A DNA stretch of 20,159 nucleotides from IMG/VR virus record IMGVR_UViG_3300037349_000340, positions 1-20,159 of that record; one strand, given 5' to 3'. Source of the stretch: a virus. This document shows, one piece after another, positions 12 to 18,940 of this stretch. The number at the start of each line of letters is the position of its first letter. Position 1 is the first letter of the stretch. The notes beneath the pieces are model-generated. The model was given only the letters and a program-made list of their open reading frames with translations, was not told where the DNA came from and did no database searches. Both the position numbers and the translations under genes were made by a program.

Positions 12-260
12 TCAGTGAATGATTGTCTTCCCAGACGCTATCAGGTGACCAGTCAGCTTGGTTGGTATCAACGATGATCCGCAACTCCCTCCAATCACTC
101 TTTGGTAGGCTGGCTGCGAAAGGGAGAAGACGGGCGAAAGGTCTGACCCCACCAGGCCGAGTGTCGCTGTCTTTGGCGTAGTTCCTGGACAGGACTGACC
201 GCGCACGGCTCCGACTGCCAACACCATGACTACAAAACCGATAAGACTCCATCGCCTCAA
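12..260 (-). CDS. Small exported protein with Sec signal peptide
   Basis: I do not recognise this 82-aa product. From the TTG at 258-260 it begins with two arginines, then a hydrophobic stretch (about residues 5-18), then a likely signal peptidase I site near Val-Arg-Gly before Gln-Ser-Cys. This reads as a secreted protein with a mature part of about 62 residues and two cysteines (QSCPG and GGSCG). I chose TTG because GAGAGGTG sits 4-5 bases upstream and the start falls just after the stop of the preceding lipoprotein gene (271). The open frame runs back to 302, but that longer start overlaps the upstream gene and has no good ribosome site. It is the last of three consecutive exported-protein genes. 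Function unknown: it could be a surface or envelope-modifying protein. Confidence 0.6.
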   Translation of the reverse strand: MRRWSLIGFVVMVLAVGAVRGQSCPGTTPKTATLGLVGSDLSPVFSLSQPAYQRVIGGSCGSSLIPTKLTGHLIASGKTIIH

Positions 261-270
261 TCGACACCTC

Positions 271-651
271 TCACTGCTTCGGATACCACTTGAGTGCAAC
301 ACTCGTTCCGCTCGCTGTTACCGTTCCACTCCATGAAGCCGTCAATATGACGACATTCAATCCCGGAGCATTAACGGTGTCCTCCATCGTGCAGCTTGCT
401 GGTCCAGTCGGAAGAGTAACCGTGTACTCGGTCACCCCCGGACCCAGTGTCACCGTGTCCTGACCGGCACATTGCAGCAGGTACCCACTGATGCACGGAG
501 CCGTCCCGCACACTGCCGCGCCTGGGTTACCATCCGCAATGCTTGATAACGTGACCGTCCCCGTTGTCGGCGGCGGCGGCGGAGGGGGAGGCGGATTCTT
601 ACATCCAGACAAAAGGAGCGCCAGAAGCGCTCCCTTGGCTATCGTTTTCAC
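271..651 (-). CDS. Lipoprotein with polyproline linker
   Basis: This 126-aa protein starts with a textbook lipoprotein signal: a lysine near the N-terminus, a Leu/Ala-rich core, and a lipobox Leu-Leu-Ser-Gly-Cys with Cys17 as the acylated residue. Lys-Asn and nine consecutive prolines (about residues 20-28) follow, probably a stiff spacer holding the rest away from the membrane. The remainder (about 30-126) is Thr/Val/Gly-rich with four more cysteines and looks beta-sheet forming. By lipoprotein sorting rules it should be anchored in the host envelope after processing by lipoprotein signal peptidase. Phage lipoproteins of this kind sometimes block superinfection, but nothing here proves that role. 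It lies 6 bases after the upstream exported gene, in the same transcription unit. Confidence 0.75.
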   Translation of the reverse strand: MKTIAKGALLALLLSGCKNPPPPPPPPPTTGTVTLSSIADGNPGAAVCGTAPCISGYLLQCAGQDTVTLGPGVTEYTVTLPTGPASCTMEDTVNAPGLNVVILTASWSGTVTASGTSVALKWYPKQ

Positions 652-657
652 TGGGAG

Positions 658-1176
658 CTAATCCCCAATCTGCGCTGTCAGAGGCTCTTCTTCCGTCAGT
701 CCCGGCGTCCACATCAACCATCCTCGCCCGGCATCCGGAGCTACCACCAACTCAGCAACCACGGTCGGAGTCGAAGTAAAGGTCGGCGCATTCACCAGAA
801 GGTTCTGAACAGATATCGAGTTTCCCCCGCTCCCGCTGTTAACCGTGCTCGTCACCAGAAGAGACCCCGCCGTCGCCCCGTAGTAGGCCGTTTGCGCCTG
901 AACCGTGTGAGAGGTAAAGACCGCCCAGTTATCCGTGGACGGTATTGAAAACAGGAAGCTGGTTCCCACTCCGGCGACCGTCCCAAGTACTACGGCAGGC
1001 GACGGTGTTGAATCGATAATTTCTGTGCCAACGATGCAATTCGCCGTCGTTCCGGAGGGGCAAATCTGTCCCGCCGTCACGCCGCTGCCTGGAGCCACTG
1101 TTCCCTGCAAGTGCTGCCCTGCGCACATCGCCAACGATGTGAACAATACGACTGCTGCCAACGCGATCTTTCTCAT
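658..1176 (-). CDS. Exported protein, possible tail or surface component
   Basis: A 172-aa product with an N-terminal signal peptide: Arg-Lys at positions 2-3, a hydrophobic core to about residue 17, and a probable cleavage around Cys-Ala-Gly before Gln. It is not a good lipobox because Met precedes the Cys. The mature part is Gly/Ser/Thr/Val-rich with a motif SGGNSISVQNLLVNAP (about residues 116-131), typical of beta-rich phage fibre or secreted proteins. The ATG at 1174-1176 has AAAGGAAAG 4 bases upstream. It is followed by the lipoprotein and the small exported gene, so three exported proteins are co-transcribed. A similar SGG...QDIYLELVNP segment is readable in the broken gene at 2622-2848, suggesting related domains. 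Function not known. Confidence 0.65.
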   Translation of the reverse strand: MRKIALAAVVLFTSLAMCAGQHLQGTVAPGSGVTAGQICPSGTTANCIVGTEIIDSTPSPAVVLGTVAGVGTSFLFSIPSTDNWAVFTSHTVQAQTAYYGATAGSLLVTSTVNSGSGGNSISVQNLLVNAPTFTSTPTVVAELVVAPDAGRGWLMWTPGLTEEEPLTAQIGD

Positions 1177-1921: not shown

Positions 1922-2194
1922 TCACCACTTTGCTTGATCGTAATTGGCCGCATGATTCGACACACCGTACTGCTTCTCCAATTGCCGCATGTGAGCCAAA
2001 CTCCTGATGTGGACCGGCCTACCGTTGAGGTGAGTCGTGGTAAAGTCCCACAAATTTTTAGCTGGATTCGGAGTCCCGCCTGCCCACTCAGCACAACCAG
2101 TGCAGTACCACTTTCCGCCGACCAGCTTGAACTTCCCGCCTTTGTACCCTTCGGCGGTGTGTTGTGGGCACTCCGGATTGGAGCAAAGTGTCAT
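1922..2194 (-). CDS. Small zinc-binding-type protein (Cys4)
   Basis: A 90-aa protein with two cysteine pairs: Cys4-x4-Cys9 near the N-terminus and Cys31-x2-Cys34 (WYCTGC) after a Gly/Lys-rich hairpin. This is the layout of a zinc ribbon. The C-terminal half (THLNGRPVHIRSLAHMRQLE, about residues 54-73) is helical and basic, so nucleic-acid binding is possible. It starts at 2194 with an ATGA overlap with the upstream membrane protein. Phages often carry such small zinc-ribbon proteins of unknown role. The ribbon is seen in the sequence; any function is inference. Confidence 0.65.
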   Translation of the reverse strand: MTLCSNPECPQHTAEGYKGGKFKLVGGKWYCTGCAEWAGGTPNPAKNLWDFTTTHLNGRPVHIRSLAHMRQLEKQYGVSNHAANYDQAKW

Positions 2195-2454
2195 GCTTGT
2201 GTCGGAGGCAGCGGACTCTGCTTCAGGAGAGCCAGCACTGGGATAATCGCTCCAGCCAACGCGACGACCCCTAAATGCTCCATCCCCGATACGGTGAAGG
2301 AAAATGAAGATGGGCTGACAAGGATCGCACCGAGCGAGGTTACCGCACCGCCGATCCCTGCTGCGATGAGGCTATGAAGCCATGGACGCCACCCTCCACT
2401 TGGGGCCTGGACTCCACTGGCTGGCGCTGTTGGTGTTACAGGTGGTGTTCTCAT
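2191..2454 (-). CDS. Two-helix membrane protein, holin candidate
   Basis: An 87-aa protein with a Pro/Thr-rich N-terminus and two likely membrane helices: about residues 26-45 (HSLIAAGIGGAVTSLGAILV) and about 58-77 (HLGVVALAGAIIPVLALLK). It ends in a short Pro-rich tail. Size and topology match small two-helix holins, which open the inner membrane at the end of infection. There is no endolysin gene beside it to confirm a lysis cassette. The ATG at 2454 is preferred over the in-frame upstream TTG at 2472 because AAAGGAAAC lies about 6 bases before it. It overlaps the next gene by ATGA. A generic small membrane protein is the alternative. Confidence 0.6.
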   Translation of the reverse strand: MRTPPVTPTAPASGVQAPSGGWRPWLHSLIAAGIGGAVTSLGAILVSPSSFSFTVSGMEHLGVVALAGAIIPVLALLKQSPLPPTQA

Positions 2455-2514
2455 TTTTGGGTTTCCTTTCAAATCATTATCCGGCCACTGCCGGGGACGC
2501 GCTACAGAAATCTC

Positions 2515-15541: not shown

Positions 15542-15783
15542 GCTTTCGCGAGTTCTTTCTTCTGTTCCTCAACAGGGGGGCGAACCGACTCAGGAGATGC
15601 CAGCGAATGCACACGCTCCTCGATCTTGTACGAACACCCTGTCTCCTTGTTGAAACAAGTAAAGCGAATCGATTCCACTCCGCGACGGCTCTTCATAACC
15701 TCGCGCTTCATCACCTCGCCGCAAGTGCAGCAGATGTGATCTCCGGCCATCAGGGGCGAGAAGTCAGGTACGGTTTTCTGCAT
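15538..15783 (-). CDS. Zinc-ribbon protein
   Basis: An 81-aa protein with a Cys4 site: CCTC (Cys18-x2-Cys21) and CFNKETGC (Cys43-x6-Cys50), the two knuckles of a zinc ribbon separated by a basic hairpin (KREVMKSRRG). The C-terminal part is Glu/Pro/Lys-rich and probably flexible. ATG 15783 has GGAGA 9 bases upstream, and the reading frame overlaps the deformylase end by 34 bases. An internal ATG at 15750 overlaps the deformylase stop as TGATG but lacks a ribosome site. Zinc ribbons of this kind bind nucleic acid or proteins. The function here is unknown. Confidence 0.6.
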   Translation of the reverse strand: MQKTVPDFSPLMAGDHICCTCGEVMKREVMKSRRGVESIRFTCFNKETGCSYKIEERVHSLASPESVRPPVEEQKKELAKA

Positions 15784-16307
15784 TGATTTGTTCTCCAGTG
15801 TTCGAAGGATTTCATTACTTCCGCTCGCGGCTTCTCTGCGATCCGGTCTACAAAAAATGTTCCCGTCAGGTGATCGAGTTCATGCTGTGCGACACGCGCG
15901 TCCATACCACGCAAGCGAAGCAGCGATTCAGATTCAGGGTCGATACTGGAACCGCACCGAAGGTGGATGTGTTCCAGTCTGGGGACGATGTGGCTACCAT
16001 TGCCAACCGGGGGAAGACTAAGGCACGCCTCAAACTGCTTTATCTCGTACCCGTAGGCTTGCACCACGATGGGATTGACGACATCAATCACCTTACCGCT
16101 GTCGGTACGCATAACGAAAAACTGCCGGAACACGCCTATCTGCGGGGCCGCCAGACCTATCCCATTGTGGTTCTTCATAACTTCCGTCATGAATGTGCTC
16201 AATGGAGAAAGAAGATCATATTCGTCAGAAGCAACAGGAGGACATTCGACGTTGATCATCTTCGGTCCGTAGCAGAGTATTGAAGCGCGAGTTGGGATAT
16301 CGAACAT
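15750..16307 (-). CDS. def: Peptide deformylase (phage-encoded)
   Basis: A 185-aa protein with all three deformylase motifs: GIGLAAPQ (residues 49-56, Gln56), EACLS (93-97, Cys95 metal ligand, with Ala in place of the usual Gly) and HELDHLTG (142-149; His142 and His146 bind the metal and Glu143 is the catalyst). The N-terminal segment ILCYGPKMINVECPPV fits the ILxYG...PV start of the family, so ATG 16307 is likely the true start. The enzyme removes the formyl group from the first Met of new proteins in the cytoplasm. Deformylases are known from marine phages such as cyanophages and Vibrio phages. The first motif and HExxH are intact, so activity is expected. It starts 3 bases after the preceding stop and overlaps the zinc-ribbon gene. 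Confidence 0.93.
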   Translation of the reverse strand: MFDIPTRASILCYGPKMINVECPPVASDEYDLLSPLSTFMTEVMKNHNGIGLAAPQIGVFRQFFVMRTDSGKVIDVVNPIVVQAYGYEIKQFEACLSLPPVGNGSHIVPRLEHIHLRCGSSIDPESESLLRLRGMDARVAQHELDHLTGTFFVDRIAEKPRAEVMKSFEHWRTNQCRKPYLTSRP

Positions 16308-17518: not shown

Positions 17519-18406
17519 CTACCAGGGCTTACCCAGATGGATCATCCATGCGTCGTTGACAAATGGTCCGGTCGCCGGGTCCGATCCGGCGACAAAGGCA
17601 TAAGGCATCCAGTAGCACCCTCCATCGCTCCTGCCTGGAGACGAAATTCCCATCGGCCAGATATCCGGCGTCCCCCATGAGTTTTGAATCAGGAACCCAC
17701 CTTTGTTTCCGTCCGGGAATTCAAGGGTGTCATCATAATCCATCGCGTGCTGCGCGTGCCCACCCATGAATTGTTCGGTCGCAAGATTCGGTACCGGCAT
17801 GAACCCCGATTGGCTCCACGTCCCTTCGAAGCTGGTGTAGACGTTGATCCCGAATCCGAACGAGTATCCGGATGCGATGCACAGCTTCATAGCTGTGATA
17901 TCCGGCAAAAAATGGTACGCGCCACCCTTGTAGACCAGTCCGTCCGCGTACTGCGCTTCAGTCGGAGGAGTTGAGTACTGTGAATCGGAGTATGGCATCT
18001 GCGAATTGAGGCAGACACCCTTCTGGTTGAGGGTGATGAATGTTTGGTGGATCGATGATCCGGCGTCCTGACCGAGGTCTCCGTCCGCAATCAGGTTGCA
18101 CAGGTACGCGAACTCAGCCGAAGCCACAAAATCCCCAGCGGCCACCGACTTGTTATTTTCGTAGGCAAATTGCGCCCGGTAAAGGAGGTCACGAACCTCA
18201 GCTTTCAACTGACCGGTGCACGATCCCTCTTTACCCTGGTTGCGAATCACTCCCATGTATTTAGACGTTGCGGCTTTGACCGGTGGAACGTATCCAGGAG
18301 CCGCTTTCAGCGCGAGGAGCCTACGCGCCGGATGATGAGGGTTGTCGGGAAAGCGTCCATACCGCCTTCCCGCCGGAGACACGGGGAGAAACGAGGTTAC
18401 CATCAT
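17519..18406 (-). CDS. Papain-like (C1 family) cysteine protease
   Basis: A 295-aa protein with the papain set in the right order and spacing: RNQGKEGSCTGQ (about residues 55-66; oxyanion Gln57, catalytic Cys63), GGHAQHAMDYDD (215-226, catalytic His217) and FLIQNSWGTP (238-247, catalytic Asn242). Family members usually have Trp after the catalytic Cys; here it is Thr, so the active site is slightly altered. There is no signal peptide. About 50 residues precede the core (Arg/Pro-rich, HHPARRLLAL) and could be a short propeptide. Cytoplasmic synthesis is expected unless release by lysis or packaging occurs. C1 proteases are rare in phages. It follows the Tat lipoprotein by 9 bases. ATG 18406 or 18403 both follow AAGGTG closely. 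Confidence 0.85.
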   Translation of the reverse strand: MMVTSFLPVSPAGRRYGRFPDNPHHPARRLLALKAAPGYVPPVKAATSKYMGVIRNQGKEGSCTGQLKAEVRDLLYRAQFAYENNKSVAAGDFVASAEFAYLCNLIADGDLGQDAGSSIHQTFITLNQKGVCLNSQMPYSDSQYSTPPTEAQYADGLVYKGGAYHFLPDITAMKLCIASGYSFGFGINVYTSFEGTWSQSGFMPVPNLATEQFMGGHAQHAMDYDDTLEFPDGNKGGFLIQNSWGTPDIWPMGISSPGRSDGGCYWMPYAFVAGSDPATGPFVNDAWMIHLGKPW

Positions 18407-18415
18407 TCACCTTTT

Positions 18416-18940
18416 CTAATCGATGCGAGCGCCGGACGGAGACAGGCCGTTCCATACGTGGCGGAAGTCGGACGCCTTCATGGGCGGGTTCGCCATCTTG
18501 GTCATGCTTCCCAGCTTTGGAGAACGCTCTTTAACAGCGCTGGTATTGACCGGGGCATTCTGCTGGAACAGACTGATGATCGACTCGATAGTTGACACAG
18601 CCAGCGAGATAAGGCTGAGGACATTTGACGGAATTCCCGGCAATGCCGCAATGAAGTTCAGAATATCGGTCAGAGCGTTGATGATCTCAGTTGCTGCGGT
18701 ACCCGGCGTCCACCCCTTGATGTCAGTCACGGCCTGCTGAAACAGAGCCTGGGCGCTTGTCGCTAGTGCGGACATGCCGAGAAAGTTTAGAAGGTTTACC
18801 ACGCCGACCCCGACCGTGCTGACCAGCGATGCAAGGGTACTTTGGTTGATGATCGATGAAATCGTTTTGCATCCGGTCATCGTTACAACGCTCAGAATGG
18901 TCAGTGCCAGACTGGACTTCAAAAATCCACGACGATTCAT
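18416..18940 (-). CDS. Tat-type lipoprotein
   Basis: A 174-aa protein beginning NRRGFLKSS, a twin-arginine (Tat) motif, followed by a hydrophobic stretch and a lipobox-like Thr-Met-Thr-Gly-Cys with Cys24. The mature part to about residue 135 is a series of hydrophobic, Leu/Ile/Val/Ala-rich amphipathic helices with Gly-Pro turns (for example VGVVNLLNFLGMSALATSAQ and LNFIAALPGIPSNVLSLISL). The tail is basic and polar. It would be exported folded and anchored by lipid at the outer face of the inner membrane or sorted to the outer membrane. The hydrophobic helix series could insert in membranes. ATG 18940 has AAAGGAAAGAG upstream. It comes directly before the C1 protease. No family recognised. 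Confidence 0.72.
   Translation of the reverse strand: MNRRGFLKSSLALTILSVVTMTGCKTISSIINQSTLASLVSTVGVGVVNLLNFLGMSALATSAQALFQQAVTDIKGWTPGTAATEIINALTDILNFIAALPGIPSNVLSLISLAVSTIESIISLFQQNAPVNTSAVKERSPKLGSMTKMANPPMKASDFRHVWNGLSPSGARID

What the first reader, a model, noticed from the sequence alone, without database searches (positions are those of the whole stretch)
17519..18940. Papain-like cysteine protease paired with a Tat lipoprotein in a phage
The C1 protease (Cys63, His217, Asn242, Gln57 all visible) sits 9 bases after a gene whose N-terminus combines a twin-arginine motif with a lipobox. C1 proteases are rare in phages, and Tat-routed lipoproteins are also unusual there. The pair could be an exported-effector module: the lipoprotein might be a membrane-inserting or receptor-blocking protein, and the protease might cleave a host or virion protein. 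The protease has no signal peptide, so it probably acts inside the cell or in the virion. This is the best candidate for an undescribed system in the window.
Basis: partly seen in the sequence, partly recalled or inferred. Interest (0 to 1): 0.75.

Follow-up and report, generated by a model that had tools for sequence, protein, structure and literature searches.

The report
Phage lipoprotein-protease pair near lysis genes
Many soil and peat viruses of bacteria carry a membrane-anchored helical protein encoded beside a papain-type protein-cutting enzyme, often next to the genes that burst the host cell, so the pair may be an undescribed helper for getting out of the cell.

Summary
The window (an IMG/VR virus fragment) encodes a 174-aa Tat-type lipoprotein and, 9 bases later in the same frame, a 295-aa papain-like protease whose only significant PDB relative is xylellain (profile E=1.3e-24); Gln57, Cys63, His217 and Asn242 are invariant in 13 relatives.

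Adjacency is conserved. Of 13 distinct protease loci, 10 carry a homologous lipoprotein within about 2 kb. That lipoprotein family (no Pfam, PHROG, NCBIfam or fold match) also neighbours a second, much larger papain-fold family (model best matches xylellain; Cys and His invariant in 48, Asn lost). The two protease families were never seen in one contig and replace each other in the same slot. Of 11 lipoprotein loci found without protease seeds, 8 have a papain-like neighbour.

The commonest neighbours are peptidoglycan hydrolases (22 of 40 loci) and small holin-like membrane proteins. So I favour a late envelope-disruption (lysis) accessory over an exported effector. Against this: this window shows no endolysin, some copies sit near recombinase genes, Tat is replaceable by Sec or lost, and the lipoprotein can be swapped. 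Function is inferred, not tested. Xylellain-type phage proteases were already reported; the lipoprotein partner and lysis linkage appear new.

The parts
18416..18940 (-). Lipoprotein gene, 174 aa: Tat-type signal with lipobox, predicted helical bundle, C-terminal FRHVWN motif (family motif Y/FxxxWN)
   Evidence: ORF; family homology (leave-one-out E=3.4e-18); AF2 model pLDDT 70 with helices 33-53, 57-75, 84-98, 105-127, 156-166
18869..18940 (-). Signal sequence MNRRGFLKSSLALTILSVVTMTGC (RRxFLK, lipobox, Cys24)
   Evidence: sequence; Pfam TAT_signal E=0.0059, below cut-off; Cys24 invariant in the 14-row family alignment A6
18407..18415 (-). 9-base gap AAAAGGTGA with Shine-Dalgarno; suggests a two-gene transcription and translation unit
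   Evidence: sequence
17519..18406 (-). Papain-like (C1, xylellain-type) cysteine protease, 295 aa, no signal peptide
   Evidence: phmmer/hmmsearch to 3ois E=4.6e-16 / 1.3e-24; 13-member alignment A4
18257..18406 (-). N-terminal conserved segment (SPAGRRYGRFPDNPHHPAR...), residues 1-50, upstream of the catalytic domain, possibly pro-region-like
   Evidence: invariant L7, S10, G13, R15, G17, D21, N22, P26 in A4; pro-region role inferred
18218..18220 (-). Catalytic Cys63 codon
   Evidence: aligned with the xylellain active-site Cys; 13/13
18236..18238 (-). Oxyanion-hole Gln57 codon
   Evidence: 6 residues before Cys63 as in papain; 13/13
17756..17758 (-). Catalytic His217 codon
   Evidence: GGHA motif; 13/13
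17681..17683 (-). Catalytic Asn242 codon (NSWG)
   Evidence: 13/13

Best explanation
The pair is a portable two-gene phage module that acts on the host cell envelope late in infection, as an accessory of the lysis cassette. Proposed mechanism: the lipoprotein is exported (Tat or Sec), lipidated and anchored in a host membrane (inferred from signal and lipobox). The papain-like protease, which has no signal, accumulates folded in the cytoplasm and reaches the periplasm when the holin opens the inner membrane, together with the endolysin (inferred). There it cuts envelope proteins that endolysin and holin leave intact (for example outer-membrane anchors or a surface layer), so that the cell breaks open; the lipoprotein takes the place that an o-spanin lipoprotein has in other cassettes. 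Shown: conserved co-localisation, papain homology and catalytic residues, lipoprotein signals, neighbouring endolysins and holin-like genes in relatives. Inferred: timing, localisation, substrate, and any cooperation between the two proteins.
For: Adjacency: a lipoprotein homolog lies 51 b to 2 kb from the protease, once per contig of 11-143 kb, in 8 contigs (product of per-contig probabilities about 1e-12). Lysis neighbourhood: among 40 loci with the module or one half of it, 22 have a peptidoglycan hydrolase within 4 kb (SleB 9, GH108 8, GH24 4, M15 1), and about 20 have small holin-like membrane proteins. Whole-contig Pfam searches put the endolysin within 5 kb of the protease in 6 of 7 distinct phages (expected 1.1, P about 5e-5). 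Two papain-fold families fill the same slot next to the same lipoprotein family, never both in one contig: L006/L007 versus L052, window/L005 versus L019. Holin-like segments are fused in frame to the lipoprotein (L041, L044). A crude scan found no i-spanin-like ORF near these modules, and Kongari et al. report about 13% spanin-less genomes and that lipoproteins are rare in phages (PMC6139136).
Against: The window itself has no recognised endolysin; its holin-like gene (2191-2472) is about 15 kb away. L005, L006 and L007 also lack a detected endolysin; L006/L007/L052 sit among methyltransferase, regulator-like and (L006/L007) serine-recombinase-like genes, a moron-like position. The lipoprotein occurs without either protease family (L021, L025, L028), many family-B proteases lack this lipoprotein, and some lipoproteins have no signal (MCK start in L004, L045, L081). 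The host, and whether it has an outer membrane, is unknown. No activity or expression timing was tested.
Confidence: 0.4

Rival explanations
1. Superinfection exclusion or lysogenic-conversion moron: the membrane-anchored helical lipoprotein blocks entry of other phages at the envelope, and the protease cleaves an incoming-phage or receptor protein.
For: Portable cassette found in different genome positions; in L006/L007 near serine-recombinase-like and methyltransferase genes; known Sie proteins such as Ltp and Llp are lipoproteins (own knowledge); lipoprotein diversifies fast (about 20% identity) while the protease stays above 56%.
Against: Most loci are lysis cassettes; no fold match to any PDB protein; a signal-less protease is hard to place in exclusion; no PADLOC match for the window proteins.
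Confidence: 0.22
2. Exported-effector pair: the lipoprotein carries the folded protease through Tat as a hitchhiker, and the protease then modifies host or neighbour-cell surface proteins.
For: Tat exports folded proteins and known partners hitchhike (own knowledge); most lipoprotein homologs have RR motifs; the genes are 9 bases apart here.
Against: Sec-type lipoproteins in L005, L008, L014, L041 and L043 and signal-less ones in L004, L045 and L081 beside equally intact proteases; a sister protease with an unrelated lipoprotein in L032; order reversed or separated in L012 and L013.
Confidence: 0.1
3. Protease plus inhibitor or immunity protein: the membrane lipoprotein restrains the protease until lysis.
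For: Linked adjacent genes; papain-like enzymes commonly have helical pro-domains or inhibitors (own knowledge).
Against: L019 and L032 carry 99% identical sister proteases with different lipoproteins; lipoprotein occurs without either protease; one lipoprotein family serves two divergent protease families; opposite compartments predicted.
Confidence: 0.08
4. Virion or capsid-maturation protease that happens to lie beside a lipoprotein.
For: In the window and L005 the pair lies upstream of the terminase-portal-capsid block, and no other maturation protease was recognised there.
Against: Not linked to capsid genes in other phages; swaps with a divergent papain family; xylellain-type C1 enzymes are not known prohead proteases (own knowledge).
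Confidence: 0.07

Closest known systems
Xylellain (3ois), xylellain-type C1A peptidases, including those noted in Caudoviricetes and Mimiviridae (PMC10380794)
   Same: Homologous over the catalytic domain (E=1.3e-24), same Gln/Cys/His/Asn, no classical cathepsin propeptide
   Different: Apparently phage-specific clade (one short MAG contig found in 84,980 genomes), own conserved N-terminal segment, conserved lipoprotein partner, lysis neighbourhood
phrog_19005-like phage proteins (here called family B; annotated 'cysteine protease and beta' in MW202816)
   Same: Papain fold with xylellain as best match, same slot beside the same lipoprotein family and endolysins
   Different: Catalytic Asn lost (I/V-T/S-W-G), Asn in the Gln position, no alignable full-length identity (hhalign probability 3%)
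Two-component and unimolecular spanins (PMC6139136)
   Same: Phage lipoprotein near holin and endolysin
   Different: About 150 aa mature helical bundle, no C-terminal TM segment, no i-spanin partner found nearby; a protease instead; Tat signal in most members
Baculovirus V-CATH with chitinase (abstract of PMC9965964)
   Same: A virus-encoded papain-family protease proposed to act at host break-up beside a glycan-degrading enzyme
   Different: Analogy of logic only; different subfamily, host and localisation
Superinfection-exclusion lipoproteins (Ltp, Llp)
   Same: Small phage lipoproteins, helical in Ltp (own knowledge)
   Different: No sequence or fold match; paired with a protease

Membership tests
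Papain family C1A, xylellain type | Sequence homology over the catalytic domain | tested here: met
   3ois E=4.6e-16, profile 1.3e-24
Papain family C1A, xylellain type | Catalytic Cys-His-Asn plus oxyanion Gln | tested here: met
   13/13 sequences
Papain family C1A, xylellain type | Passes the curated Pfam Peptidase_C1 model (supporting, not defining) | tested here: inconclusive
   No Pfam match at E<=0.1 although distant phage relatives pass; divergence rather than absence of homology, given
Papain family C1A, xylellain type | Peptidase activity | not testable with these tools
   needs an assay with a Cys63-Ala control
Tat-exported lipoprotein | Twin-arginine motif and lipobox | tested here: met
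   MNRRGFLK...TMTGC; most homologs alike
Tat-exported lipoprotein | Passes the Pfam TAT_signal cut-off | tested here: inconclusive
   17 vs 22.7 bits, E=0.0059; the model is 21 positions long, so a weak test
Tat-exported lipoprotein | Actual export and lipidation | not testable with these tools
   needs fractionation or globomycin assay
Spanin (o- or u-spanin) | Lipoprotein encoded in a holin-endolysin cassette | tested here: inconclusive
   22 of 40 loci near a peptidoglycan hydrolase, not in this window
Spanin (o- or u-spanin) | Linked i-spanin, or C-terminal TM segment (u-spanin) | tested here: not met
   no i-spanin-like ORF by a crude scan; the window protein ends in a soluble-looking helix
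Anti-phage defence system | Match to a known defence family | tested here: not met
   PADLOC no match for either window protein
Superinfection-exclusion lipoprotein | Blocks infection by related phages | not testable with these tools
   phenotype

The most novel reading that the evidence does not exclude
Phages lacking spanins have replaced the membrane-fusion step of lysis by proteolysis: an exported helical lipoprotein plus a papain-type protease released with the endolysin dismantles the outer envelope. It would be a further route to outer-envelope disruption, assembled repeatedly from two papain families and exchangeable lipoproteins.
Probability: 0.22. Interest if true: 0.82.

Novelty: new variant of a known kind. 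Interest (0 to 1): 0.6.

Why it matters
About 13% of the phage genomes surveyed for spanins have none recognisable, and how those break the outer membrane is an open question (PMC6139136). A conserved lipoprotein-protease pair in lysis cassettes gives a concrete, testable candidate. It also puts names on two unannotated gene families, one with at least 233 IMG/VR loci, and shows that papain-type enzymes are common in uncultured phages although almost absent from isolates.

Tried and rejected
Direct Pfam/PHROG/NCBIfam/PADLOC naming: nothing for either window protein beyond the sub-threshold TAT_signal match. Lipoprotein scan with the window sequence alone: no relative, too divergent; it worked only with alignments. 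Folding the two ORFs as one read-through chain to test a complex: the joint alignment was wrong, so it was abandoned. Profile-profile comparison of the two protease families: not significant; structure comparison settled the fold instead. Lipoprotein fold search: no significant match in PDB or BFVD. Nucleotide search of isolates with the window's right end: nothing. L008 and L014 lipoproteins are not significant homologs in leave-one-out and were not counted. Inhibitor pair rejected as leading idea because of lipoprotein swapping (L019 vs L032).

Full report
OBSERVATION. The window is a 20,159-base virus record. On the minus strand a 174-aa ORF (18416-18940) is followed after 9 bases, in the same frame, by a 295-aa ORF (17519-18406). 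The first starts MNRRGFLKSSLALTILSVVTMTGC, a twin-arginine signal with a lipobox, although Pfam TAT_signal scores it below its cut-off. The second has no Pfam, PHROG or NCBIfam match, but in the PDB it matches xylellain, a C1 cysteine protease, at E=4.6e-16 alone and 1.3e-24 as a profile. Gln57, Cys63, His217 and Asn242 are the catalytic positions, invariant in 13 relatives.

RELATIVES. Two viral scans and one genome scan found 14 loci encoding the protease at 56-75% identity, L008-L010 being one phage and L015 a short MAG contig; with the window there are 13 distinct loci. Among 50,697 isolate phage records only three hold distant relatives. The lipoprotein is much more divergent (about 20% identity), but a profile of the others finds the window copy at E=3.4e-18, and homologs in L003, L004, L005, L006, L007, L011, L012, L013 and L015 are likewise recovered when left out. 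So 10 of 13 loci have it. L008 and L014 have a different short lipoprotein there, and L002 ends too close to tell. In whole contigs each has one lipoprotein and one protease, 51-2036 bases apart. Both genes show far more synonymous than nonsynonymous change.

A SECOND PAPAIN FAMILY. Scanning with the lipoprotein brought in L019, where the next gene is a 260-aa protein of phrog_19005. That family (B) is abundant: 233 IMG/VR loci. Its AlphaFold2 model (pLDDT 93) has xylellain as best PDB match (E=1.6e-8, probability 1.00), and its profile hits the same entry at E=0.0018. Cys68 and His193 are invariant in 48; the Asn of NSWG is replaced by I/V and the Gln by Asn. Sixteen of 79 family-B loci (about 13 distinct) carry a homolog of our lipoprotein, mostly next door. 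A second lipoprotein scan gave more loci, all of the new ones with a family-B neighbour. Counting only lipoprotein loci found without a protease seed, 8 of 11 have a papain-like neighbour (L019, L115, L118, L121, L122, L125, L126, L127 yes; L021, L025, L028 no). Families A and B never share a contig and replace each other in the same place: L006/L007 (lipoprotein-A) versus L052 (lipoprotein-B) with the same flanking genes, and window/L005 (lipoprotein-A upstream of the terminase block) versus L019 (lipoprotein-B-terminase). L032 has a protease 99% identical to that of L019 but an unrelated lipoprotein in front, so the pairing is not strictly specific.

NEIGHBOURHOOD. Clustering of neighbours in 40 loci shows cell-wall hydrolases as the commonest recognisable genes: SleB-type 9, GH108 8, GH24 4, M15 1, together 22 loci, plus several families of small holin-like membrane proteins in about 20. 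In whole contigs with a Pfam-detected endolysin it lies within 5 kb of the protease in 6 of 7 distinct phages, where 1.1 are expected (P about 5e-5; phages are related, so this is approximate). In L041 and L044 a holin-like segment is fused in frame before the lipoprotein. Exceptions are real: the window, L005, L006 and L007 have no recognised endolysin.

LIPOPROTEIN. The model is an all-helical bundle with a C-terminal helix carrying the family motif Y/FxxxWN (pLDDT 70), without significant match in PDB or BFVD. Most members have Tat signals, some Sec signals, and a group (L004, L045, L081, L126) has no signal and starts MCK. Tat is therefore usual but not essential.

INTERPRETATION. The most economical reading is a late envelope-disruption accessory of lysis cassettes: exported lipoprotein in the envelope, cytoplasmic protease set free with the endolysin. 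Spanin surveys find lipoproteins rare in phages and about 13% of genomes without spanins (PMC6139136); a crude scan found no i-spanin-like ORF near these modules. The steps of localisation, timing and substrate are inferred. Superinfection exclusion is the main rival, because the cassette is portable and sometimes sits near recombinases. A dedicated hitchhiking effector pair is weakened by Sec and signal-less members and by lipoprotein swapping. The same swapping argues against a protease-inhibitor pair.

NOVELTY. Xylellain-type peptidases in tailed phages were already noted as horizontal transfers (PMC10380794). I found no report of the lipoprotein family, its link with two papain families, or the lysis neighbourhood, but only an open-access library was searched.

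Noticed in passing
window 658-1176, 271-651, 12-302 (minus); L004 3036-5081; L025 353-3031; L028 1613-4099: Tail-fibre-like or neighbouring proteins of these phages begin with Sec signal peptides or lipoboxes, odd for virion proteins; the 822-aa (median) family recurs in 8 of 40 loci.
   Followed up: partly
L041 2059-2814; L044 4786-5589; L032 3080-3994; L100 2980-3642: Holin-like membrane segment fused in frame to a downstream lipoprotein, in two cases to this family and in two to unrelated lipoproteins.
   Followed up: partly
L004 6870-7403; L045 4919-5416; L081 808-1305; L126 4479-4973: Signal-less versions of the lipoprotein that start Met-Cys-Lys, keeping the lipobox Cys as residue 2.
   Followed up: no
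L005 2497-2808; L126 3390-3671: Acyl carrier protein gene beside the module in two distant phages; in L126 next to the signal-less form. L005 also has a second Tat lipoprotein (2208-2573).
   Followed up: partly
L030-L111 (family B): Papain-fold family with at least 233 IMG/VR loci and no assigned function (phrog_19005), often directly beside lysozymes (L040, L085, L090, L111).
   Followed up: yes
L012 6813-7361; L115 1509-2072: Second predicted papain-superfamily (YiiX/NlpC-like by eye) enzyme between protease and lipoprotein.
   Followed up: no
window 15750-16307 (minus); L005 5832-6428: Phage peptide deformylase (Pfam E=6.7e-28 in the window) downstream of the pair, similar gene in L005.
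   Followed up: no
window 2191-2472 (minus): Small membrane protein resembling the holin-like protein next to the lipoprotein in L025, L028, L045, L118 and L127, but 15 kb from the pair here.
   Followed up: partly
L003 4965-5345; L004 7403-7666; L115 2682-2939; L118; L081: An 85-126 aa protein family of unknown function recurring beside the lipoprotein.
   Followed up: no
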